A stretch of 64,000 nucleotides of DNA from Petasospora fabianii (Eukaryota; Ascomycota; Saccharomycetes; Phaffomycetales; Wickerhamomycetaceae), in contig CP048716.1 of assembly GCA_022641835.1 (NCBI GenBank), positions 1,364,001 to 1,428,000 of the forward strand, given 5' to 3'. Shown piece after piece: positions 22,641 to 50,208 of the stretch (within the stretch, counting starts at the first letter, position 1; every line of letters begins with the position of its first letter). A program made the translations under genes and the position numbers. A model generated the notes under the pieces. That model had not been told where the DNA came from. It was given only the letters and a program-made list of their open reading frames with translations, and searched no databases.

Positions 22641-24242
22641 TCATTTCGCTTGTTCAGCCTCAGCTTTCTCCTTGGCCCGTTTCTCTCTCTTTGCTCTCAC
22701 CTTGGAAACGTGGAGAAGCACAAACGGTAGAGCTATGTTGGTCCACACGATCCACACAAATAGAATTCCGATGTTACGGCCCATCTGGCCCTTGTACGTG
22801 TTACAAAACACAACCTTAACTAGCTCAAACGCATTGTGAATCGGCATAGCGTAACCATATCTGTAGAAGGGGTATGTCAGAGCCATAGGAGACGTGGTTG
22901 GTGCAACGTTGAAAGCCATAAGCAAGACAACCCAACCACCAATGAGTGGTGGGTAGTAGGTAAAGAGTATCGTGGCTGCAATCTCGTTGAGCGTACCAAG
23001 TGATCCTATCAAGAGGTATGCAACAGCAAGGAGAACAAGTCCACCAGAGTGTCCAAAAGCTGAAGTAACATCAATCTTGAATGTGACATTCAACACAACA
23101 AATGAAGCTGCGAGTGTCAGATAAGATAACTGTGACACTAGCACTTTCACCAGGATAAACTTGGCTCCATGGACAACCGAGGCAAGATATATCTGGATTC
23201 GAATGGTCATAAGCATCTGGAAAAATGTAAACACAACAAGATACGATAACCCAAGTTGGAATGGAGCTGCAAGGATAGCAGCCGCGGGTCTCATATCAGT
23301 AAATACGAAAGTTGGTGGGGCTGCAAGCCATCTCAATGTGCTGACCTTGTCTTCATTCGAGTCAAAACTGTTCACCAGAGTTCCGTATTGTCCTTTGATG
23401 ACTTGAACAAAAGCCTCCTCAAACTGTTGACAAAATGTAACCACATATGACGATACAGAGACAAGGTCCCTTCCCGTCTCGTAGAGCACTTCAATCTGTC
23501 CCGTCAAGTTAAAAGATGTATCATTGTTTTGAATAGCAGTGTAAAGATCATACGTGATGTTCTCTGGGATATAAATGGCGGCCCAATACTTCTGATGATG
23601 CACAAGACGAATAGCCTCCTCCTTGAATGTGTTGTTGTGTTTGGCCGCCTGTGGGGCAAACGCATCGTGGTCAAATACCCTCCAAGCACCAATGGCATGA
23701 ATACCAGGCACTTGAAAAGCCGTATAGTTCACGGATTGTCCAACAATGGGCGGTACACCATTAACTTGTTGGTCATCGTTCACGACAAGGATTTTCATGT
23801 TGTGATAGTAATTCTCACGCTTATGGTATGTTCCCCACATAACAGACAGCGCGATAGAAAAGATCAATGCCAGAATGATATAGTTCTTCAAGAAGGTGAT
23901 GTAGATATTGGCACGCTGCTTCTTGAAATCTGAATCCCAGAAACCCATCTTGGCAATCTTCTGGTATGCACCGGTGCTCTTGATGCTCTCCACGATAGTG
24001 GAACGGCGTCGCTGAAGCGGGGTTGGGGGCGGTTCTGGTGCCTCTTCATCCCTGTCTCTGCTTGTAAGCGTTCTCATTATGGTGTTTCCAGCAATAGCAT
24101 CATCCTCTTGTAGCATCTGTTCAATCACGTCCTCGTTGAGCCGTTGAACCTCATCCGCAACAGAGCCTTCTGAGCTATCGCTCAAAAGCGAGTGGTTGGT
24201 AGATGAGGACCTGTCCAGGCGCTGACTTTGTGAGACAGACAT
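22641..24242 (-). CDS. SNG1-family membrane protein (DUF3533), copy A
   Basis: The start is taken at ATG 24242 (MSVSQSQRLD, A-rich context) rather than at 24431; the extra 63 residues read like leader sequence. The 533-aa protein has a hydrophilic, Ser/Glu-rich cytosolic N-terminus, a first membrane segment at about residues 115-140 (NYIILALIFSIALSVMWGTY), a large lumenal or external domain with several NxS/T sites, and about five C-terminal membrane segments, ending in a basic tail. This layout is DUF3533, the family of S. cerevisiae Sng1 (nitrosoguanidine resistance). It forms a head-to-head pair with a paralogue at 24523. The precise transport role is not established. Confidence 0.85.
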   Translation of the reverse strand: MSVSQSQRLDRSSSTNHSLLSDSSEGSVADEVQRLNEDVIEQMLQEDDAIAGNTIMRTLTSRDRDEEAPEPPPTPLQRRRSTIVESIKSTGAYQKIAKMGFWDSDFKKQRANIYITFLKNYIILALIFSIALSVMWGTYHKRENYYHNMKILVVNDDQQVNGVPPIVGQSVNYTAFQVPGIHAIGAWRVFDHDAFAPQAAKHNNTFKEEAIRLVHHQKYWAAIYIPENITYDLYTAIQNNDTSFNLTGQIEVLYETGRDLVSVSSYVVTFCQQFEEAFVQVIKGQYGTLVNSFDSNEDKVSTLRWLAAPPTFVFTDMRPAAAILAAPFQLGLSYLVVFTFFQMLMTIRIQIYLASVVHGAKFILVKVLVSQLSYLTLAASFVVLNVTFKIDVTSAFGHSGGLVLLAVAYLLIGSLGTLNEIAATILFTYYPPLIGGWVVLLMAFNVAPTTSPMALTYPFYRYGYAMPIHNAFELVKVVFCNTYKGQMGRNIGILFVWIVWTNIALPFVLLHVSKVRAKREKRAKEKAEAEQAK

Positions 24243-24522: not shown

Positions 24523-26406
24523 ATGGACGACCTGAGTTCCGAAGAGGCGCAGGGACATCCTCGTACGCGGAGACGTGAGCTCTCAGAAGTGGATCCTTTC
24601 GATAACACGTCTTATCGAACAACAACACAGGACGACCACGACTTCTCGGGCCTTGATGCATTGCCAGAGGACCTCCATCTCACAACCTCCAGGACATCCT
24701 TCAGAAGGCGCTCCTCTGCCAGTCGACTGGGTCCCATGGGTGCCGCTGGCTCGTCTGATACTACTAATCCAGGTCAGAACGAAGAGCAGGGATTAAACCA
24801 GCCCGAGTTCACAACACCGCAGTACAACCTTGCCACGAAGGAGAACCGCATTGACGAGGAGGCGGAGTCTGATACTGAGCTCGATGATCATGCCGTGATT
24901 CCTATCCATGCGGATAACCAGTTCTATCGTGAAGACACACAGAGAAAGCAGTCCTTTTCTACTCTTCCTTCCGCTACAACGAGAAGAAGCTCGGTAAGAA
25001 GAAACTCATCAGTTGCTGGCGCTAGTTTTACTGGGGAGAATGCAGATGGTGGACCTGCAACCAAGGTTGAGACGACCAAGTCTGTAAGAAAGAAAAGACG
25101 GCATGCGGAGTATATCAAGATTGGATGGATGTTTGGTAGGGTCTATCTCATCATCTTCATCATGTTCTTCCTCATTTTGTCGATCTACTGGGGGTCCTGG
25201 TATGACCGATCAAGTCACTTGAAACGCATTGGGTACTTGGTTGTCTCTGAGGAACAGACCGTGGAGAATGTTCCACCACTCATCACTGAAACGCTCTTTG
25301 GCTTGCTAAACTCGTCCACTGCACATACTGTTGGAACATTCCACTTTAAGTCCGCTGAAATTATACAAAAGGCAGCTGATCACAACAACACCATTCTCCA
25401 ACAAGTCATCAGTGAGGTGCATAGGCAAAACTACTGGGGTGCATTCTACATCGCAGCAAACACGACCTTTGACTTTTACACTGCTCTCAAGACCCAAGAC
25501 ACATCATTCAACACCACTTGCATCAAACTAATCTATGAGAATGGAAGAAAACCACAATCCGTTCAGAATTATGTTGTCAGCCCAATGCTCACCATGCAAA
25601 CCGCATTCGTTAAGCTCTCCTCATCATATATCTTTGAACCACTCATTGGACAACTTTCATCCAATGAGCAGCTTGCCCTCGCCACAAATGCATCATCACT
25701 AATTTCTGGACCATGGTTCGAGTTCCTTGACAACAGGCCTGTCAAAGAAACTGTGATCACTGGTCCAATCCAAATCGGGCTCATCTACATGCTTGTGCTC
25801 TCCTTCCACCAGTTTAACTTTGCATCGTCGACGCATGAGACCATCAGAGCACTTGTTCCATTGAGACAATACCTCGTGTACCATATTCTCACTTCTCATA
25901 TGGCCTACATCTGGCTCAGTCTTGTCTACTCGTTAATCTCCATTGCCTTTGGTGCCCCATACGACGCAACATTTGGTAAGAGTGGATTCCTCGTGTTATG
26001 GGCATTCACATATCTTCTCATGGCGGCACTTGGTGGTCTCAATGAGAATGCTGCCTTACAGATCTTTGCTAGGGACAGACCACTCATCGGATTCTGGATT
26101 GTGTTCTTCATGGTTATCAATCTTGCCCCAGTGTTCTCACCAATCACCGTGACGAATGTCTTTTACAGATATGGTTATGCTATCCCTATGTATAACGGTC
26201 ATGAGTTGTTGAAGATTGTGTTCTTGAATACCTACAAGGGTAACATGGGACGTTGTATTGGTATCCTAATCGCATGGATCTTGTTGGCAAACATTATCCT
26301 TCCGTTCAACTTGAAGAGTGTCAAGAGATACAAGCAGAAGGTTGAAGCGAAAGCAAAAGCCGCTCTTGAAAAGGCCCATGAGAAAGGTCAGTCTAGTGAT
26401 AGTTGA
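24523..26406 (+). CDS. SNG1-family membrane protein (DUF3533), copy B
   Basis: The 627-aa paralogue of the gene at 22641-24242 has a longer polar N-terminus (about 1-200, including a basic RKKRRHAEY just before the membrane). The first membrane segment is VYLIIFIMFFLILSIYWGSW. A glycosylated lumenal domain and about five C-terminal segments follow. It shares blocks with copy A such as YRYGYA(I/M)P, ELxKxVFxNTYKGxMGR and the IGxLxxWI segment. The head-to-head layout points to an old inverted duplication; the two copies differ clearly in length and sequence. It ends in a Lys/Ala-rich cytosolic tail. Confidence 0.87.
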   Translation: MDDLSSEEAQGHPRTRRRELSEVDPFDNTSYRTTTQDDHDFSGLDALPEDLHLTTSRTSFRRRSSASRLGPMGAAGSSDTTNPGQNEEQGLNQPEFTTPQYNLATKENRIDEEAESDTELDDHAVIPIHADNQFYREDTQRKQSFSTLPSATTRRSSVRRNSSVAGASFTGENADGGPATKVETTKSVRKKRRHAEYIKIGWMFGRVYLIIFIMFFLILSIYWGSWYDRSSHLKRIGYLVVSEEQTVENVPPLITETLFGLLNSSTAHTVGTFHFKSAEIIQKAADHNNTILQQVISEVHRQNYWGAFYIAANTTFDFYTALKTQDTSFNTTCIKLIYENGRKPQSVQNYVVSPMLTMQTAFVKLSSSYIFEPLIGQLSSNEQLALATNASSLISGPWFEFLDNRPVKETVITGPIQIGLIYMLVLSFHQFNFASSTHETIRALVPLRQYLVYHILTSHMAYIWLSLVYSLISIAFGAPYDATFGKSGFLVLWAFTYLLMAALGGLNENAALQIFARDRPLIGFWIVFFMVINLAPVFSPITVTNVFYRYGYAIPMYNGHELLKIVFLNTYKGNMGRCIGILIAWILLANIILPFNLKSVKRYKQKVEAKAKAALEKAHEKGQSSDS

Positions 26407-27639: not shown

Positions 27640-27759
27640 TGACAACACCTTAACACCACCCACTTTGGATCCGCTGCTTCGCTTGTGGTGAAAAAAAAAC
27701 TTCGAGCCCGAACTTTTCATAGGTATTCAGTAACTTGAGCTTCTTCCTCCCCCACATAA

Positions 27760-27799
27760 GACCGGAGTGTTTTAACCAACTAAATTCACAGAGATGGTC
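27760..27799 (+). promoter_or_regulatory. L30 autoregulatory kink-turn in the RPL30 pre-mRNA
   Basis: GACCGGAGTGT at 27760-27770 and CAGAGATGGTC at 27789-27799 reproduce the two strands of the S. cerevisiae L30 binding site. GACC pairs with GGTC, leaving the purine-rich asymmetric loop (GGA opposite GAGAT), and TGT pairs with ACA. The lower stem includes the start codon and the exon-intron junction. In S. cerevisiae, free L30 binds this RNA to block splicing and translation of its own transcript. Confidence 0.8.
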
Positions 27800-28253
27800 A
27801 GTATCTACTGCTTCGTCGATGGTACCACTGCTTGAGTCTGTCAGCTCTTTCGGGAGCAATGCTTTCAAGAGACTCTTGCGTCGATGGGACATCACTTGTG
27901 CTGTTTAAAAGGAACATCATACTAACATTTTACTAAAGGCCCCAAAGAACCAGGAGAACATTAACCAGAAGCTTGCTTTGACTATTAAGTCCGGTAAGTA
28001 CACCCTTGGTTACAAGTCTGTCGTCAAGTCCATGAGACAGGGTAAGGCTAAGCTTGTCATCATCGCTGCCAACACCCCAGTCCTCAGAAAGTCTGAGTTG
28101 GAGTACTACGCCATGTTGTCCAAGACCAACGTCCACTACTTCCAGGGTGGTAACAACGAGCTCGGTACTGCTTGTGGTAAGCTCTTCAGAGTTGGTGTCC
28201 TCGCCATTACCGACGCTGGTGACTCTGACATCTTGACCTCCCTTGAGGCTTAA
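27794..28253 (+). CDS. RPL30: 60S ribosomal protein L30 (eL30), spliced
   Basis: Exon 1 contributes only the ATG (27794-27796); exon 2 is 27939-28253, giving 105 aa as in S. cerevisiae. The intron (27797-27938, 142 nt) begins with the unusual GTCAGT, has the branch TACTAAC at 27920-27926 and ends AAAG. The protein reads [20 protein letters not shown], then the family blocks [38 protein letters not shown] and [23 protein letters not shown] is also the noncanonical 5' splice site of S. cerevisiae RPL30, where it is part of the L30 autoregulatory element; the same RNA motif is present here just upstream. Confidence 0.96.
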
Positions 28254-28775: not shown

Positions 28776-30368
28776 ATGTTGTCGTCACAGGCGTCCAACG
28801 CCATCATGTACATCACGTACGGTGTGCTGCTCATCACCGGTCTCCTCATCGCTTGGAAGGTGAAGAGCAAAGCCGGATTCCTCTCTGCTAACCAGACACA
28901 GGCAGGTCTTCCGCTTGCACTCAACTTTGTCGCCTCAGGTCTTGGATGTGGTATTCTCTCCACTTATCCACAAGTTGCCAACTTGGCAGGTCTTCACGGC
29001 TTGCTCGTGTATGCAGTCTCTGGTGGTCTACCGATGTTCTTGTTTGCATTCTTCGGACCAATGTTGAGAAAACGTTGTCCAAGCGGTTTCGTCTTGACCG
29101 AGTGGGTCTTCCATCGCTTTGGTCTCATCACAGGTCTATACTTGTCTGCATGCACCATCCTCACATTGTTCCTCTTCATGGTGTCAGAGATTGCATCCTT
29201 GCAGTATGCAGTTGAGACGCTGACAGGTCTTAGCGCCCTACCAGCCGCCATTGTCCAGTGCGTCGTCACCACAATCTACACTGCCGCTGGTGGTTTCAAA
29301 GTGGCTTTCATCACAGACACTGTTCAAATTGTTGCTGTTTTATTGATGCTCATCATCGTGACATGTTCCATTGGTGCATACATTGACATTGACAGAAGTT
29401 CTGTTGATTCCTCCGGCCTTTTGAAGGACAATCTTGTTGGATGGCAACTCGTCTACATCCTTCCAGTTGCCATTTTCACAAATGACCTCTTCCTGTCAGG
29501 TTTCTGGCTGCGTACGTTTGCTGCTCGTTCTGACAAGGATCTCTGGATTGGTTGCTCCATCGCTGCTTTCTTCCTGACATGCATTGCCGCATTGGTGGGT
29601 GTCACTGGTCTTCTCGCTGTCTGGGCTGGATGGGTTGAAATTGGAAGTTATGACTCGTCTGCATCTCTTTTCATTATCTTGCAAAACATCCCAGCATGGG
29701 TCTCTGCATTCACTCTGATCTTTGTCGTTGCCATCTCTGTTTGTACATTGGGTTCTCTCCAGTCTGGATTGACGTCAACGATTTCCAACGACATCTTCAG
29801 AAACAAGGTTCCACTCATTTACATCCGTGGTATTGTCGTTCTTATCATTGTCCCAGTCATTGTGGTTGGTCTTAAGGTTGCTGATGATGTGCTCCAGATC
29901 TACTTTATTGCAGATTTGCTTTCTGCTGCTGTTATCCCTATCATCATGCTTGGTCTCTGGGATAAACTCTATTTCATGACTGGCTACGAGGTCATCTCTG
30001 GAGGTCTTGGTGGTCTTCTCGCTGTCTTCATCTTTGGTACCATCTACTACCACTCTGCTAAGGAGGGAGGTAAACTTCTCTTGATTTGGAATGGTATCTA
30101 TGGTGGAGACTGGGGTTGTTTCGCTGCATTCGTTGTGGCTCCATTTGGAAGTTTGTTGGTTGCCGCCATTGTGTGCTGTCTCAGATTGACCATCTTGAAG
30201 GTGTACTCCAAGGTCACTGGTAAGCCATTCACCGCTCTTGATAAGCCAGCCCCAACTAAGTCTGCGGAGGAGGATGTTGAGGAGGATGCCGATTCCTATG
30301 AAAGAACCAGTGATGTGGAATCTTCGAAGGATCATGCTACTACCACCAAACTCCTTCACGGATTTTAA
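28776..30368 (+). CDS. sodium:solute symporter family permease (Dur3-type, possible urea transporter)
   Basis: The start is placed at ATG 28776 (MLSSQASNAIMYITYG) because the first membrane segment follows directly; an in-frame frame opens at 28728. The 530-aa product has about 13-15 membrane segments and an acidic cytosolic tail (about 490-530). It resembles the SSS family (TC 2.A.21), with a helix pattern such as NFVASGLGCGILSTYPQVAN, LTEWVFHRFG, and AAGGFKVAFITDTVQ (the SSS GGxxAVxxTDxxQ signature). Fungal members related to Dur3 import urea and polyamines. The substrate here is inferred only. Confidence 0.75.
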   Translation: MLSSQASNAIMYITYGVLLITGLLIAWKVKSKAGFLSANQTQAGLPLALNFVASGLGCGILSTYPQVANLAGLHGLLVYAVSGGLPMFLFAFFGPMLRKRCPSGFVLTEWVFHRFGLITGLYLSACTILTLFLFMVSEIASLQYAVETLTGLSALPAAIVQCVVTTIYTAAGGFKVAFITDTVQIVAVLLMLIIVTCSIGAYIDIDRSSVDSSGLLKDNLVGWQLVYILPVAIFTNDLFLSGFWLRTFAARSDKDLWIGCSIAAFFLTCIAALVGVTGLLAVWAGWVEIGSYDSSASLFIILQNIPAWVSAFTLIFVVAISVCTLGSLQSGLTSTISNDIFRNKVPLIYIRGIVVLIIVPVIVVGLKVADDVLQIYFIADLLSAAVIPIIMLGLWDKLYFMTGYEVISGGLGGLLAVFIFGTIYYHSAKEGGKLLLIWNGIYGGDWGCFAAFVVAPFGSLLVAAIVCCLRLTILKVYSKVTGKPFTALDKPAPTKSAEEDVEEDADSYERTSDVESSKDHATTTKLLHGF

Positions 30369-40784: not shown

Positions 40785-43700
40785 ATGCTTGAATCTCTTG
40801 TTGCAAGCATTCTCAACAGGTTCTTGGTATGTCTATGTCTACCTCTTCTTGCCCGCGCGTGATTCGATTTACTCGGTCTACATCAGGGTGCTGTTGCCCA
40901 TACACGCTACTAACTATTCAATTTACCAGGGAAGCTATGTTGAGAACTTCGATCCCAAACAATTGAACATCGGAATTTGGAGTGGAGATGTCAAATTACG
41001 AGACTTACGACTCAAGAAAGAGTCTCTCGACAAGCTCGAGTTGCCCATTGACGTCAAATTTGGTCACTTGGGTGAGCTCACATTACAGATTCCATGGTCC
41101 AACTTGAAAGGTAAACCTGTCAAGGTCTCTATCGAAGATGTTTACCTTCTTGCTACGCCAATTGTCCTCGAGACTTACGACTATGAAACACAACTCAAGA
41201 GAGAGTTGGAGCTCAAACTCAGGAGACTCATGGATCTTGAACTCAGAACACGAGCCAATCCTACTAATGCCATCTCTGATGAAGATGCTGCAAAGAACGA
41301 GTCATTCACCGAAAGTCTCGTCACAAAGATTGTCGACAATCTGCAAGTCACCATCAAGAACATCCATGTGAGGTATGAAGATGTGCAGGGTGCCTTCACT
41401 GATTCTCCGTATGCCATTGGTGTCGTGTTGAAAGAATTGTCAGGTGTCTCTACAGATGAAAACTGGTCGCCAACATTTATCTCAGTCGCCACTCACTTGA
41501 CACATAAACTTCTTACATTGAACTCTCTTTGTGCCTATTGGAACACTGACTCTGCCTCCATTTACACAGATGACCACGATGAGCTTCTCAAAAAGTTCAA
41601 GGCTTCCATCATCAATGAGGAGAACATGGATGAATTTGACGACACTCAATTCCTTTTGAGACCAGTCACAGGCTCTGGTCACTTGACTCTGAACAAGCTT
41701 GGCTCTACTGCAACGCAACCTCACATCAAAACGGAAGTCTTCTTTGAGGAATTTAGTCTTGATTTGGACTCACACCAGTATAGAGATGCTTTGTTATCTG
41801 CTTCCAGGTTCCACTGGTACAACAAGACCCATAAGTTCAAGAGATTTAGACCGACTGTTCCTTTGGAAGGACACGCAAAGGAATGGTTCCGCTACGCTGC
41901 TGAATCAGTTCTCAGTGAGATCCACGAGAAAAATTACCGCTGGAGTTGGGACTACCTTAGGCAGAGACGTGATGATCGTAAGGCGTACATTGGCCTCTGG
42001 AAGCAAAAACTCAAGCTGCCAGACATCTCACAAGATCTTTCGGATGCCCACAGTAATAAGGCTCTGAGAGAGCTCGAGGTGAAGCTTCCATATGAGGACA
42101 TTAAATTCTTCAGATCTCTCGCAAGATCCGAGATGAGAAAGGAGAGACTTGCTGCTGCTGAGTCAGACCCTGCATCTACAGAACATCAACCACAGCAGAC
42201 TACACAGGCTCGTGGAGGCTGGTTCTCAAGTTGGTGGAGTAAATCATCTGGCGAGTCCTCTGAGGACAAGCTGGTCATGACCGATGAACAACGTGAGGAG
42301 TTTTACGATGCTATCGAGTTCGACGAAACCAAGGCCCTATCTGATGCTATCAATGTTCCTCGTGATCGTGTCAACTTTGAGTTGAGCGCTCAGTTGAAAA
42401 GGGGTGGTATCTCCATCAAGAGCAAGGAAAGCAACAACGCTCTTGCCAAGGTCATATGGGAGGGATGTTCCGGTCAGCACTTCCAAAGAGTGGACTCTTT
42501 CTTGTCTACATTCACATTGCAGGAGTTCAAGGTTGAAGACGGTACTGGATCCACCCTTTACAAGAACGTTGTGAGCGTCAAGCCATTGAACTCGGACCTC
42601 GAAATGGAAGAGGTTACCGAGCCATTCTTCAAGGTTTCTCTCGAAAACAATCCACTGAAGGGAATTGCTGATGTTGCATTGATGGCCAAGCTAAGAAGTA
42701 TGACCATCTTCTACCATGTTGACTTCATCAATGAGATCATTAAATTCTTCACTCCACCGAAGGCACATCTTGACACCATCAACGCCATTATGAATGCTGC
42801 TGAGGCCACTGTTCATGGTCTTACTGCACAGACAAGAATGGGGTTGGAGGCCATGTGGGAGAATCATAAAGTAATTGATGCCAAGCTTGACTTGCAGGCT
42901 CCTTTGATCATTCTTCCTCTTAATCCCAACTCCTGGACATCGCCATGTGCTGTTATCGACGCAGGTCATATCAGTGTGATCAGTGACCTTACAGATACTG
43001 AGAGAACCAAAGCTATAAAGAAGTTGAGTCCTGAGGAGTACGACCGCATTGACATCAACGAGTTGAAGGCTCTAATGTATGACAAGTTCAACCTGCATCT
43101 CCAAGATACACAGGTGCTCATTGGGCCAACCATCAGATCCACAGTCGAGCAGTTACATTCCGGTAAGGAGTCTTCGTCACTCGTTCTTGACAAGTTGGAT
43201 ATGAAGATTCTTGCTGAGATATCCATGCTTCCAAACTCTGCTAACCTTGCCAAGTTTAAGACCAAAGCATCATTGCCAAGATTCGTTGCAAAGATGAATG
43301 ACTACCAGTACAAGATCATGATGCAGCTAATTGACAAATGCATTCCAGACTTCTCCTCTAGTACTGAGGATATCGACGACTCCCAGAAATTTGCCGCTCC
43401 ATTTGATGTTGGTCTCGGTATGGAAGACAGTGTCACTCTTCATGAGCTGAGCCCGCCACCTGATTCTGAAGACTCCGGCAGCAAACCATCTCTTGAAAAG
43501 CAGCATATCTTCGAGCTTAATTTTGACGTTGAAAAGGTACAGTTGTCTCTCTTGAAGTGCACTGATGGTAAGACCATGGCTGCTGATCCTGTTGTCGATC
43601 TTGTTGCCGAACGCTTCTCCCTTGAATTCTTCAAAACTGAGACTGACATGCATGTTGACTTGGTTCTTGCCACCTTCAACATTGAGGACTGGGTCGATCA

Positions 43701-46700
43701 GACTGGTCCGGCCGAGTTCCGTAAACTGATCTCCTCGAACAATTTCTTAGATAATGAGCATGTTGACACTGGTAAGGATATTTTCAAGCTGAAGTATGAT
43801 CGAGTCCGCAGATTGGTCAACCTTGACGGTAAGGACATTGAACTCTTCGACCAAGATGTTGATCTTAAATTGTCAACTTTAAAGGGTGTGTTGACTTTGA
43901 AGAGTTTTATGACCATCTTGAACTTCATTTTGACAACATTCACTGATCCGAACCCTCCAGAACAGCCATCTGATGCCTTAAGACACAACGATGCTTCTGA
44001 TATTGAGACTTCTCCTCAACAGATCCGCTGTAATGTGAACCTTGATGGTATCACACTGGTGCTCAATGATGACGGTATCAAGCTGGCTACTATTCAGCTC
44101 TCCACTGCACTCTTTGACATCTTCGTATTGCCAGAAAAGATGAAGGTTTACTGCAAGCTTGGAGCATTGACACTTCATGATGATGTGAATGAAGGTACGT
44201 CGCGTGACTCGGTTCTGAGAAAACTTTTGAGCTTTGAAGGTGATGAGCTTGCTGAGTTCACATATGAGACGTATGATGCTGTCTCCAATCCAGGTCTTGG
44301 CTATTCTTCCAGCTTCGACTTCACAGCCGGCTCCTTGAGATTGAATTTTGTCGACGAGCCACTAAATAAGGTGCTTGGATTCTTCAACAAGTTCCAGCAG
44401 ATGAAGTCTTACTTCGATTCCGCCAGAGACTCTGCATTCAACCAAGTAAATCTTCAGGACCAGAACATGAAGCTTGATTTCACCATCAAAACTCCGATCA
44501 TCATGTTCCCAAAGATTGCGGATTTCAAGACTGATAAGTATGACGACGTCACAGTCTACTTGGGTGAGTTCCATGCTTGTAACAGTTTTGTGAAGGAGGC
44601 ATCTGGCTACATGAACAAGATGGATTTGGGTCTTCGCTCGACCAAGTTGACCTCAAGCTTCCACACTGATGATGGTATCCAATCTCTGAACATCATTGAC
44701 GAAGTCGACATTTCATTTGACATTGAACTCCTGAATGGTGCTGTGGATCGCCCTGCCATGAAGGCTGTTGGTGAGATGACCAACGTTTCTGCTGACTTAA
44801 CTGCAAAGCAGCTCTCCTACATTTATGCTTTGTTGCAGAGTGTCCCAAAGGTCTTCGAGTTTGACAACTCCAAGTCATTGTCAGAGATTGAAGATGCGGC
44901 TATGAATGCCAACCAGGTCATTGCTCCTAATGCAGTGTATCACGCTGATAAAGACGTGGTGGCCAAGCCGTCCACTGATAATGTTGTTGAAGGAGATCCT
45001 GACTCCATCAAAGTTGACTTCTCCTTTTCTATCCCTGAAGTTTCATTGAGCCTTCATGAAAGTCCATCTTCTACCGAACTCGTCGATACTGGTATCACAA
45101 CACTTTCTCTGAGTGACATTGGTCTGACATTCAGCCAGTCACAGGATACCCACTTCAAGTCTGACATTCACATTGGAAGTCTCACTGCTAAAGACATACG
45201 CCAAGTCAAGGATAATAAGTTCACTGAGATTATCCCTAAGATTGGAGTTAAGGATCACCAATTCTCTGCTAGGATCTCGACTGATGGTCCTGTCGACAAC
45301 AAGAACACAATCATCATGGCCACTGTTAACAGTCCAAAGGTCATTTTTGCAATCGAATATTTGTTCGCCTTAAAGTGCTTTATCGATGAAGGCTTGACAC
45401 TTCCTTCTGAGCTGGTGGTCAAGTCTGAACAAGACAGTGAAGAGAAGGACTATGATGAGTCACTGATCGATAACACACTGGATCAGGCAGACTCTGATGC
45501 TTGTCCTACGTCAAATACTACTTCTAGACTAGGTTTCTCTTTGAATGTTGTGGACACATCTCTGATTCTTCTAGCTGACCCAACTTCGGAGAGCACTGAG
45601 GCCATTGTTTTCAAGATTGAGCAGCTTTTGGCTTCGAAGCAGAATGTCAGTACTGCCAGTGCCAACAACGTTGGTATGTTCCTGTGCAAAATGGACAACT
45701 TTGAAGGCAACAGAATTAGAATTATTGATGACTTCTCATCATCTGTGGTAATTGATGGAAGAGGCAGCACCGCTGATAACTATCTGACATCCATTCAAAT
45801 TGCTGTTGAGCCATTGTTACTGAGAGTTTCCGTGGCGGATATCAAACTGGCCCTCTCCATCTTTAACAAGGCCGCTGAGCTATCAAAGAGTGCTGATGAC
45901 GACGAAAAGAACGATACCAACGCTGAAGACACTTACACCACATTCACCAAGGAGTTCAAGCGCAAAGTCAGCCAATACGCTCCAAGTATTGTGACCTCCC
46001 TATCTGGTGGAAGATCGAGACGTGGTTCTGCTATCCAGAAGGACGTCATCATCAAAGCTGAAGAGCTCAATGCCGATATTGAGGGTCTTCGTCTGGTCAT
46101 CATTGGTAATGTTAACGAGCTTCCTGTCTTGGATATGTGCGTTGAACCATTCCAGCTCGTTGCCAAGAACTGGTCTACTGATATGGAAGTTGACGGTAGT
46201 ATTCAGTCCTTTGTGAACATCTTTAACTATGCGAAGTCCTCCTGGGAGCCTCTGGTGGAACCTTGGCCATTCGCTGTTCATATCTCTAAAACCATGTCTT
46301 CAAAGCAAAAGCTCTCGGTTGATTTCATTGCCAGAAAGATTGCTGAAGTTACACTTTCATCTCGCTCGATCGCTTTGTTGTCCAATGTGTTCTCTTCTAT
46401 CTCCGGTAACGGTGAGATCCAAGGCAGAGGTAGTTTAAAGCCATACAAAATCTTGAATGAGACTGGTTTTGATATCAACGTCTGGGTCGCTTCCTCGGAT
46501 GACTCCCGGACAAACCTGACCACTATTAAGGATGGTGAAACTACTCCATGGGAGTTCGAAGACTGGAAAAAAGTCCGTGAGAACTTGGACACAGATAATA
46601 ACAAAGGTGTTCTTGGAATTGAGTTCTTGGACTCTACCTACGACCAGCTGTTAAGTGTTCCGGTGACAAGTGAGGGTGAGGAGCTCTACATGCTGACTCC

Positions 46701-49700
46701 GTCCGTCGGTGACTACCACAACAGGCTCAGTGCTGACGTAAAGTTGGGTGATGACAACGTAAAGACGATTACTTTGAGATCCACTGTCGTTGTTGAGAAC
46801 GGTACTCAGGTCCATGTTTTGATCAAGGGTAAAAAGGAGTACAAGATTCTTGCAGGAGAGTCCAGGGCTATTCCAATTGACGAAGTCTATGATACAAGTC
46901 TCTTGATCAAACCAGACATTAAAGTTCCATTTGGATGGTCAAACACCTCCATTTCATGGAAGAGAATCACCAAGGGCCCAATGTCTTTGAGATGCCCGTC
47001 TGCTGATACAGAAGACACCACAAGTTTCTTCTTCCAAGTAGATGCTCAATTTGACAAGAATGAGCCACTGACCAAGGTTTATCCTCACATGAAGGTTGTT
47101 CTATCTGCCCCGCTGGAGATTGAGAACCTATTGCCATACGACATGACCTACAGACTTTATGACAGAAGCTCGAAGCGTGATTGGAGAAACTTCCTCAAGA
47201 AAGGAAGTACAAGTCCTGTGCATGTTGTCAAGCTGGAGCATTTCTTGCTCTTGAGTGTTCAACCGGTTGACACTGGCTTTGCTAAAAGTGACTTTGCCAT
47301 CATCAACGCCCCAGATAGCAGTGAGTTCAAGCGTGAGACTCGTTTGTGCTTGAAACATGAGGATAGTCAGACGCTGAAGCTTGGAATCCACTACAGCACC
47401 TCCCACAGTGGTGCCGGTTTGAAGGTAACAGTTTTCTCTCCATATGTCATCTTGAACCGTACTTCCAGAGAGCTTTTCGTTCGTGAGAACTACAACACAC
47501 TCCACTCCAAAGTCACAGGGGATGACGTTCTCAAGACAACGGCACCAATGATGTTCTCTTTTAATGAGGAAGCGGACGTGAAGTCGAGAGCACTGGTGAA
47601 GTTTGGTGATTCTGGATGGAGTAAGCCCGTGTCGTTTCACACTATTGGCCAAATCTCCCAGGTTGATATGGTTTACCCGGACAAGAAGACGTCTGTCAGT
47701 CTCGGTGTGACAGTGAACGAGGGTGAAGGTAAGTACAAGTTGACAAACGTTGTGACATTGGCACCGCGCTACCTTCTCACCAACAAGTTCTCCCAAGAGA
47801 TTGAATGTCTGGTTGTTGGCTCTTCTGAGCCATTCCGTCTAACACCAGGTGAACACCGCGCTTTGTATGGTTTGCCAATGGTGCCCAGAAATCAAATCAT
47901 GGTGAGACTACTGGGTGGGAAATCAGAGTGGTCCTCTCCATTCAACATCAAAGACGTTGGTCAGATCCATTTGAAGACTTACAGACATGATGTTGGTGTT
48001 GTGTTGTTCAAGGTTGACGTTATGTTAGAAGAGGCTTCCCTGTTCATCCACATTGCTGACGCTGAGAACCACTGGCCATTCTCCATCCGCAACTTCAGTG
48101 ACCATGAATTCCTTTTCTATCAGTCTGATCCAAACGTTGATGAGAATGAGGAGGTTGTTCAGGGTGACGGAAGAGAGTTTAAGCCCTTGTATTACAGAAT
48201 CCCACCAAAGAGTGTCATGCCGTACGCATGGGATCATCCAGCTGGTATACATAAGGAGCTTGTGCTGAGAGCTTCTGGTAGAGAGAGACGTGTTCAATTG
48301 GCTGAGATTGGAAGCCTTCGTCCAATGAAACTTCCGAAGGCCAATGCTATCGTTGACTTGAATGTCATTGCTGATGGTCCTACTCAAACTCTTGTCATCT
48401 CCAACTATGACCCATCACTGAGTCTTTACAAGCTTAGCGATTCTCAGACAGCATCGAATGTCTCAGTCGCCGATTCTGACCGTTTCAACGTTGCCGATGA
48501 GAGCATGGATATCAGCACTCATGTCGTCTTCAAGTTCGAGGGTTTGGGTGTTTCGCTCATCAACACACGTCTTCAAGAGTTGTGTTACATCAGTGTCAAT
48601 GGTATTGAGCTCAGGTTCAACGATTCGGAGATCTATCAGACATTTAGTTGGAAACTCAAGTGGCTCCAGATTGACAATCAATTGTTTGGTGGTATTTTCC
48701 CAATTGTTCTATACCCAACTGTTCTTCCACAGTCTACCAAGGAGATGAACAACCACCCAGCGTTCTCTGGTTCTGTCACCAAGGTCAAGGATGATACCCA
48801 CGGTGTTATTTACATCAAATACCTCACTCTTTTATTGCAGGAGATGTCCATTGAGATCGATGAAGACTTCCTGTTTGCGCTGTTGGACTTCTCCAAGATT
48901 CCAGGTGCTGGTTGGAACAAGGAGGTTGAGGATAGGCTGTGTGATGAGGTTATCCAATTGCCAGAACCATCCGAAGCTATGACGGGCAGTGACGTCTACT
49001 TTGAAGCATTGCACTTGCAGCCAGTGCAGATGAACTTGTCATTTGTCCGTACTGAGAGAATCAACGTCGAGGACAAGAGCTCTTCCCAGAATGCCATAAT
49101 GTTCTTCTTGAACGTGTTGACCATGGCCATTGGTAACATTAACGATGCCTCCATCAGATTGAACGCACTGCTCATTGACAATGTCAGAACTCCAATCCCA
49201 ACCTTGATTCAGCACATCCAGACGCATTACGGCCAGGCATTCTTCTCCCAGATTCACAGGGTCCTTGGATCAGCTGACGTGATTGGTAACCCAGTCGGTC
49301 TTTTCAACAATATCAGTTCCGGTGTTATGGACATCTTCTACGAGCCCTACCAGGGTTTCGTTATGACTGATCGTCCACAGGAGCTGGGTATCGGCCTTGC
49401 AAAGGGTGGCTTGAGTTTCCTCAAAAAGACAGTGTTTGGTTTCTCTGATAGTTTCGCCAAGGTGACCGGATCTATCGCCAAGGGTTTGACTGCGGCCACT
49501 TTGGACAAGGATTTCCAAGAACGTCGTCGCTTGACCCAGCGCAGAAACAAGCCAAAGCATGCCCTTTATGGTTTCAGTAATGGTGCTACTTCGTTTGTCG
49601 ATGGTATAACTAGTGGTATCACCGGTATTGCATTGGGACCAGTTCAAGGCGCTTCGAAGGAAGGTGCATCTGGTTTCTTCAAAGGTATCGGTAAGGGTTT

Positions 49701-50208
49701 GATTGGTCTTCCAACCAAGACTGCAATTGGTGTCTTTGACTTGGCAAGTCAAGTTGGTGAAGGTATCAAGAACTCCACTACTGCATTCGATGGTGATGGA
49801 TTGGACAAGGTTCGTCTTCCAAGACATGTTGCTCGTGACTCCGTCATTGAGAAGTTCAACGAAAGAGAAGCACAGGGTCAATTCTGGCTCAAGATGGCTG
49901 GTGGTGGTGAGTTCTTGAACGAGGACTATGTTGCCCATGTTGTTCTTCCAGGTGAAGAGTTGGCTGTGATTGTCACGTACAAGCTCATATTGATGATGTC
50001 AACTGCTACACTTGGTGTGAACTGGTCCATAAGCTTTGATCAGATCAAGTCCATTACTCAGGAGAAGACTGGTATCAAGATTGGTTTGAACAGTTCGAGA
50101 CAAGGTCCATTCATCCCACTTCCACACGCTGAGTCGAGAAGATTCCTCTACAAGAACATCGGTGTCGCTGTGAATGAGTATAACAAGAATTGCCAGGTTG
50201 TGCCATGA
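40785..50208 (+). CDS. VPS13: Vps13, bridge-type lipid transfer protein, spliced
   Basis: Two exons, 40785-40826 and 40930-50208, encode 3106 aa, close to S. cerevisiae Vps13 (3144). Exon 1 gives MLESLVASILNRFL, which joins to GSYVENFDPKQLNIGIWSGD, the chorein N-terminus that meets donor membranes. The intron (40827-40929, 103 nt) starts GTATGT and has TACTAAC at 40908-40914, ending CCAG. The unspliced frame runs on upstream but in a different frame from exon 1, so splicing is needed for the native N-terminus. The long middle forms the lipid groove. The VAB (SHR-BD) adaptor-binding region with its characteristic Asn-containing repeats lies roughly at residues 1880-2500. The C-terminus has amphipathic ATG_C-type helices (GxxKGLxGLPTK) and a PH-like end. 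It works at organelle contact sites. Confidence 0.96.

What the first reader, a model, noticed from the sequence alone, without database searches (positions are those of the whole stretch)
27760..27938. RPL30 keeps both the L30 autoregulatory kink-turn and the noncanonical GTCAGT 5' splice site
Sequence shows GACCGGAGTGT and CAGAGATGGTC flanking a short loop, with the ATG followed directly by GTCAGT and a TACTAAC branch. In S. cerevisiae L30 binds this structure to block splicing of its own RNA, and the splice site is equally unusual. Inference: the feedback loop is conserved here, although other splicing signals (branch to AG of 10-15 nt) differ from S. cerevisiae.
Basis: partly seen in the sequence, partly recalled or inferred. 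Interest (0 to 1): 0.7.

Follow-up and report, generated by a model that had tools for sequence, protein, structure and literature searches.

The report
Yeast RPL30 self-regulating RNA switch
A yeast ribosomal-protein gene carries, right at its splice site, an RNA shape like the one that in baker's yeast lets the protein shut off its own production; the mechanism is textbook, and this looks like one more, well-preserved example.

Summary
The gene is RPL30 (eL30), divergent from RPL24, in a budding yeast that reads CTG as leucine. Its intron runs 27797-27938 (142 nt): ATG|GTCAGT, TACTAAC, AG. The 40 nt at 27760-27799 can form an L30-type kink-turn: stem GACCG/UGGUC, 2+5 purine loop (GA/AGAGA), second stem GUG/CAC. 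No second such structure was found in 639,456 strand-bases of this genome. GTCAGT is off-consensus here: 15 other hand-picked introns have A (12) or G (3) at +3, never C. That C (27799) also closes the kink-turn stem, which could explain why an unusual splice site is kept. L30's F85 and K32 are unchanged. The short branch-to-AG distance (13 nt) is usual in this species (10-17 nt in the 15 others). Against: the fold energy is unremarkable, and in wider context a standard folding model prefers other structures by 2.2-3.3 kcal/mol. Binding, splicing repression and covariation could not be tested, and the S. cerevisiae letters were recalled, not compared. Best reading: the known RPL30 feedback loop, conserved. 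New member of a known kind; modest interest.

The parts
27760..27799 (+). L30-type kink-turn: stem GACCG/UGGUC, 2+5 internal loop GA/AGAGA, stem GUG/CAC, apical loop
   Evidence: Sequence; local fold; only site in structural scan
27760..27764 (+). 5' strand of the outer stem (GACC + G of the G-U pair)
   Evidence: Pairs with 27795-27799; pair probability 0.95-0.99 in the 51-nt local fold, 0.01-0.02 in three longer ones
27765..27766 (+). GA, short side of the internal loop
   Evidence: Sequence
27767..27769 (+). GUG, 5' strand of the inner stem
   Evidence: Pairs with CAC 27787-27789, probability 0.68 locally, 0.08-0.29 in longer folds
27787..27789 (+). CAC, 3' strand of the inner stem
27790..27794 (+). 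AGAGA, long purine side of the internal loop; its last A is the A of the start codon
   Evidence: Sequence
27795..27799 (+). UGGUC, 3' strand of the outer stem: UG of the start codon plus GUC of the 5' splice site
   Evidence: Sequence, fold
27794..27796 (+). RPL30 start codon (the whole coding part of exon 1)
   Evidence: Frame with exon 2; no ATG in 27650-27793
27797..27802 (+). 5' splice site GTCAGT, off-consensus for this genome
   Evidence: 0 of 15 other hand-picked introns use GTCAGT or +3 C
27797..27938 (+). RPL30 intron, 142 nt; if retained, reading stops after 13 codons
   Evidence: exon 2 in frame with L30
27920..27926 (+). branch site TACTAAC (branch A 27925)
   Evidence: 13 nt to the G of the AG
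27937..27938 (+). 3' splice site AG
   Evidence: reading frame
27939..28253 (+). RPL30 exon 2 (eL30, 104 codons after the Met, plus stop)
   Evidence: PDB matches 7pzy 186.2, 6uz7 184.8, 1t0k 179.7 bits; PF01248 91.9 bits
26562..27029 (-). RPL24 (eL24), divergent neighbour
   Evidence: best PDB match 6uz7, 261.7 bits over 1-155

Best explanation
This is the RPL30 autoregulatory element. When L30 is in excess, it binds the kink-turn that the leader, start codon and first three intron bases form in the nascent RPL30 transcript, and stalls splicing, so that the unspliced RNA (which reads into a stop after 13 codons) makes no L30. The splice site stays off consensus (+3 C) because that C pairs with G27760 and closes the stem: the same letters serve as 5' splice site and as protein-binding stem. 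Shown here: the anatomy, its being the only such site found, the intron signals, the splice site being unusual in this genome, and conserved L30 residues. Inferred: L30 binding, the splicing block, and the reason for the +3 C.
For: Motif and coordinates; only kink-turn of this form in 639,456 non-overlapping strand-bases; 2+5 purine loop with a G-U pair beside it, fused to ATG and 5' splice site; +3 C in 0 of 15 other picked introns, A in 12 and G in 3; L30 identical to the 1t0k chain at 87 of 103 aligned columns, and the same at all 15 positions compared (25-28, 32, 33, 36, 46, 47, 52, 83-87, among them F85 and K32). Papers agree on the S. cerevisiae mechanism: Rpl30 binds an internal loop near the 5' splice site and affects U2 recognition of the branch site (PMC5755908, passages); the transcript is bound cotranscriptionally and spliced slowly (PMC5393171, passages); RPL30 has a non-consensus 5' splice site (PMC7430680, passages); F85 is the most prominent contact (PMC3706390, passages).
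Against: Fold energy is no better than shuffled sequence (z -0.52; 27755-27860 z 0.29). In three longer folds the outer stem falls to probability 0.01-0.02, and in five contexts the kink-turn costs 2.2-3.3 kcal/mol over the best alternative; the model ignores the non-canonical pairs of kink-turns, the protein and the order of transcription. L30 differs from S. cerevisiae at positions 30, 34 and 81 close to the compared residues. No binding, expression or RNA-seq data; no cross-species covariation. A screen for conserved fungal RNA structures, PMC8216456, has no mention of RPL30 in its main text (term search).
Confidence: 0.87

Rival explanations
1. The kink-turn is kept mainly to control translation of the spliced mRNA, and splicing is not the main target in this yeast.
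For: In S. cerevisiae the spliced RNA is reported to fold and bind too (PMC5640933 and PMC3706390, passages). The element overlaps the start codon.
Against: In the spliced leader the pair A61-U98 becomes A-C and the outer-stem pairs have probability at most 0.04, by a model that ignores kink-turn pairs. The off-consensus splice site is explained only by the unspliced form.
Confidence: 0.07
2. Leftover of common descent: the leader letters persist but L30 no longer regulates in this yeast. The GTCAGT may then persist for another reason, such as setting a slow splicing rate.
For: No functional data; the wider-context folds disfavour the stem. A +3 C by itself changes splicing: it can add a G:C pair with U6, and in fission yeast GUCAGU inhibits splicing steps depending on context (PMC4299874, passages).
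Against: A 40-nt stretch with all kink-turn parts intact, and an off-consensus site not seen in 15 other picked introns, are unlikely to persist without use.
Confidence: 0.05
3. Chance match to a short motif.
For: Loose sequence patterns do occur by chance (6 against 5 for the reversed control).
Against: It sits exactly at the ATG and 5' splice site of RPL30, and the full structural form was found nowhere else in the bases scanned.
Confidence: 0.01

Closest known systems
S. cerevisiae RPL30 (formerly RPL32) autoregulatory kink-turn
   Same: Same gene and place (leader, start codon, 5' splice site; passages), purine-rich internal loop, non-consensus 5' splice site, conserved L30 residues
   Different: Intron 142 nt (S. 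cerevisiae about 230 nt, recalled), branch-to-AG 13 nt; the S. cerevisiae RNA letters were not compared in any call
rpl30 motif of Li and Breaker 2017 (PMC5640933; passages)
   [quoted passage not shown] no model was available to test membership (nothing at this site in Rfam 15)
Other RP splicing feedback loops (RPS14B, RPL22, RPS9; named in passages)
   Same: Ribosomal protein acting on splicing of its own transcript
   Different: Different proteins and RNA structures; in this genome RPL22 and RPS14 have introns with GTAAGT and GTATGT, and their regulation was not studied here

Membership tests
RPL30 L30-binding kink-turn | Lies in RPL30 and spans leader, ATG and 5' splice site | tested here: met
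RPL30 L30-binding kink-turn | Two helices around an asymmetric 2+5 purine loop (GA/AGAGA) with adjacent G-U pair (exact definition recalled) | tested here: met
RPL30 L30-binding kink-turn | Off-consensus 5' splice site, paired in the stem | tested here: met
   GTCAGT; +3 C faces G27760; 0 of 15 other picked introns
RPL30 L30-binding kink-turn | L30 keeps its RNA-contact residues | tested here: met
   F85 and K32 (positions from PMC3706390 passages) and 13 further positions unchanged; 30, 34 and 81 differ. The list of contacts beyond F85 and K32 is recalled.
RPL30 L30-binding kink-turn | Structure stable in the transcript context | tested here: inconclusive
   Outer stem 0.95-0.99 locally, 0.01-0.02 in three wider folds; cost 2.2-3.3 kcal/mol in five contexts
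RPL30 L30-binding kink-turn | Spliced mRNA re-forms a similar structure | tested here: inconclusive
   Outer stem at most 0.04, inner stem 0.36-0.38, by a model that ignores kink-turn pairs
RPL30 L30-binding kink-turn | L30 binds it and excess L30 blocks splicing | not testable with these tools
   needs a binding or expression experiment
RPL30 L30-binding kink-turn | Covariation across related yeasts | not testable with these tools
   no yeast collection held; a viral-contig scan with exon 2 gave 33 pattern matches, none a relative
rpl30 motif (Li and Breaker 2017) | Match to that motif's model | not testable with these tools
   no such family matched from Rfam 15; figures and supplements not held

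The most novel reading that the evidence does not exclude
The RPL30 5' splice site is locked off consensus by the kink-turn: its +3 C is a structural base of the L30 site, so L30 and U1/U6 compete for the same letters. The same C weakens pairing with U1 and can add a G:C pair with U6 (PMC4299874), so it may also slow splicing and widen the time in which L30 can act. This double constraint would have held an odd splice site in place since the split from S. cerevisiae (same site there by recall), while other signals drifted (here GTACGT is the commonest 5' site in my sample and branch-to-AG is 10-17 nt).
Probability: 0.5. Interest if true: 0.42.

Novelty: new member of a known kind. Interest (0 to 1): 0.27.

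Why it matters
It adds a yeast outside the CUG-serine group, whose L30, L24 and Rpb2 score similarly against S. cerevisiae, K. lactis, C. albicans or Komagataella chains (species of the PDB entries recalled), in which the RNA and the protein side of the RPL30 switch are both present. It also offers a simple reason, testable by single-base changes in a lab-yeast reporter, for a splice site that stays off consensus.

Tried and rejected
U6 mimicry: the RPL30 leader ACAGAGATGGTCAGT matches 13 of 15 bases of this genome's U6 ACAGAGATGATCAGC. Rejected as not unusual: 59 sites in the genome match that U6 15-mer with up to 2 mismatches, one of them U6 itself. The reversed control has 19, so the forward pattern is commoner than its control; I did not compute odds for the RPL30 site alone.

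CUG-serine or CUG-alanine yeast: rejected. With CTG as Leu against Ser, Pfam bits were higher for VPS13 (664.1/649.2, 455.1/436.6, 158.8/136.2), GH63 (578.7/573.5; 233.1/223.4; 98.4/98.2), the four PPR models (PPR_2 97.3/92.2) and MFS_1 (46.1/44.4). The other way or level: Formyl_trans_N 113.5/113.7, VPS13_C 88.6/88.6, and TRI12 passed 1e-8 only with Ser. Ala was run for two proteins only (GH63, PPR): lower for the main matches (574.9, 225.3, 92.4), higher for MGH1-like (99.7).

Species identity: not settled. An intron-wide structure: rejected (z 0.22). Papers with the element's letters: 35 hits, 20 listed, none on RPL30 by title, 15 not seen. GUCAGU with RPL30: 0 papers.

Intron sample: 15 introns, picked by hand, no RNA evidence. 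Nine come from rows or the stretches around them printed (one search had 46 rows, copies of RPL30 among them; most rows were dropped without close study, one printed stretch, at 68.6 kb, was dropped as unclear). One (VPS13) comes from reading the window. Five come from loci chosen as likely to hold introns: ACT1, an ARP gene (two), RPL22, RPS14. Acceptors were chosen by reading frame: one search printed a wrong acceptor for the 66 kb gene (24 nt), corrected to 13 nt; in the SEC22-like gene a nearer AG, also in frame, exists (5 nt), and I took the one at 14 nt.

Full report
What is there. The stretch 27760-28253 holds the leader, intron and coding sequence of RPL30 of a budding yeast. Exon 1 codes only for the start methionine (ATG 27794-27796); the intron is 27797-27938 and exon 2 runs from 27939 to the stop at 28251-28253. 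The protein is identical to the 1t0k chain (S. cerevisiae) at 87 of 103 aligned columns and to the 7pzy chain (C. albicans, label recalled) at 89 of 101. RPL24 lies beside it in the opposite direction, as in S. cerevisiae (recalled).

The kink-turn. G27760-C27799, A27761-U27798, C27762-G27797, C27763-G27796 and G27764-U27795 form the outer stem; GA 27765-27766 faces AGAGA 27790-27794; GUG 27767-27769 pairs with CAC 27787-27789. The local fold gives these pairs, the outer stem at 0.95-0.99 and the inner at 0.68. A scan for this structural form over the window, 200 kb of contig C1 and 21 smaller own-genome loci (658,180 strand-bases, 639,456 without overlaps) found only this site, listed three times because L011 and L019 overlap the window. 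This is about 5% of either strand pair of the 12.3-Mb genome's neighbourhood, not the whole genome: 319,728 of 12,335,623 bases. The bare sequence pattern without structure is not significant genome-wide (6 against 5).

The splice site. Of 15 other introns picked by hand in this genome, 5 use GTACGT, 3 GTATGT, 3 GTGAGT and one each GTAAGT, GTATGG, GTAGGT and GTACAT; +3 is A in 12, G in 3, C in none. The genes include actin, an ARP1-like actin, RPL22, RPS14, RPS24, a SEY1-like GTPase, a SEC22-like SNARE, a V-ATPase proteolipid and VPS13 (names from the spliced sequences and recall; Pfam searches support VPS13, RPL22, RPS14 and the actin family). U1 of this genome begins ATACTTACCTT, so GTAAGT would pair fully and +3 C is a mismatch. 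In RPL30 that C closes the kink-turn stem. The branch-to-AG distance is 13 nt in RPL30 and 10-17 nt in the 15 others with the acceptors I chose.

What a +3 C does elsewhere. In two fission yeasts GUCAGU is found in 3 of 5,702 and 1 of 5,350 annotated introns, and in their telomerase RNA it is thought to hyperstabilise pairing with U6; in the budding-yeast actin intron GUCAGU did not inhibit the second step (PMC4299874, passages). This yeast's U6 has the ACAGAGA box. So the splice site may also slow splicing by itself, which would help feedback but is not shown here.

Results against. The element does not fold better than shuffled sequence (z -0.52). In three longer folds the outer stem drops to 0.01-0.02, and in five contexts the kink-turn costs 2.2-3.3 kcal/mol. 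In four of these five the winning fold has a hairpin that pairs 27793-27802, the ATG and 5' splice site region, with bases 27807-27817, which are transcribed just after the kink-turn is complete. Standard energies leave out the sheared G-A pairs of kink-turns and the protein, so I weigh this lightly, but it is a real gap. In the spliced mRNA the outer stem is not predicted (at most 0.04).

Literature. That Rpl30 represses its own splicing in S. cerevisiae by binding near the 5' splice site is long established (passages of PMC5755908, PMC7430680, PMC5393171 and PMC3706390). Li and Breaker 2017 describe an rpl30 motif with a purine-rich internal loop (47 examples, 26 species), mostly in 5' UTRs of L30 genes (PMC5640933, passages). 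PMC4202332 (passages) mentions the RPL30 feedback loop on the exon-intron boundary and gives GTATGT as the Saccharomycetaceae consensus. PMC8216456 has no RPL30 in its main text, and PMC3315480 reports no evidence that RPL30 is regulated by splicing in mammals (passages). I recall, but could not read, work on conservation in K. lactis. GUCAGU together with RPL30 is in no paper held; GUCAGU with splice site, yeast and intron is in two, of which I read passages of one. I make no claim that the conservation is unpublished.

How it most likely works. Excess L30 binds the nascent leader, recruitment of U2 is hindered (S. cerevisiae work cited), and the retained intron stops translation after 13 codons. 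Binding and repression are inferred here.

Taxonomy. CTG reads as Leu on balance. L30 scores best against 7pzy, L24 against 6uz7, and Rpb2 about equally against the 1i3q and 5x4z chains (1879.6 and 1874.7 bits; species of these entries recalled). I did not name the species.

Verdict. The idea most worth following is that the kink-turn holds the splice site off consensus.

Noticed in passing
window 40785-40929: VPS13 has a short exon 1 (MLESLVASILNRFL, from 40785) and an intron 40827-40929 (GTATGT, TACTAAC, 103 nt); the long ORF 41230-50208 alone misses the N-terminus.
   Followed up: yes
window 22641-24242 (-) and 24523-26406 (+): Two divergent neighbouring genes of the DUF3533 family (SNG1-type, name recalled), 307.4 and 338.2 bits: perhaps an inverted duplication.
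   Followed up: partly
window 28776-30368 (+): The gene just downstream of RPL30 is a weak match to the sodium:solute symporter family (PF00474 23.0 bits, cut-off 22.8), perhaps a DUR3-like urea transporter (recalled).
   Followed up: partly
own genome, 15 hand-picked introns: GTACGT, not GTATGT, is the commonest 5' splice site in this small sample (5 of 15).
   Followed up: partly
window 27788-27802: Leader ACAGAGATGGTCAGT resembles the U6 ACAGAGATGATCAGC box (13 of 15); 59 genome sites match that box equally well or better, U6 included.
   Followed up: yes
window 27793-27817: A predicted hairpin pairs the ATG and 5' splice site region with bases 27807-27817 and would exclude the kink-turn (4 of 5 folds); not better than shuffled sequence for the stretch.
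   Followed up: partly
L176 (own genome C2:1777000-1777900): ARP1-like actin gene has two tiny introns of 60 and 59 nt.
   Followed up: no
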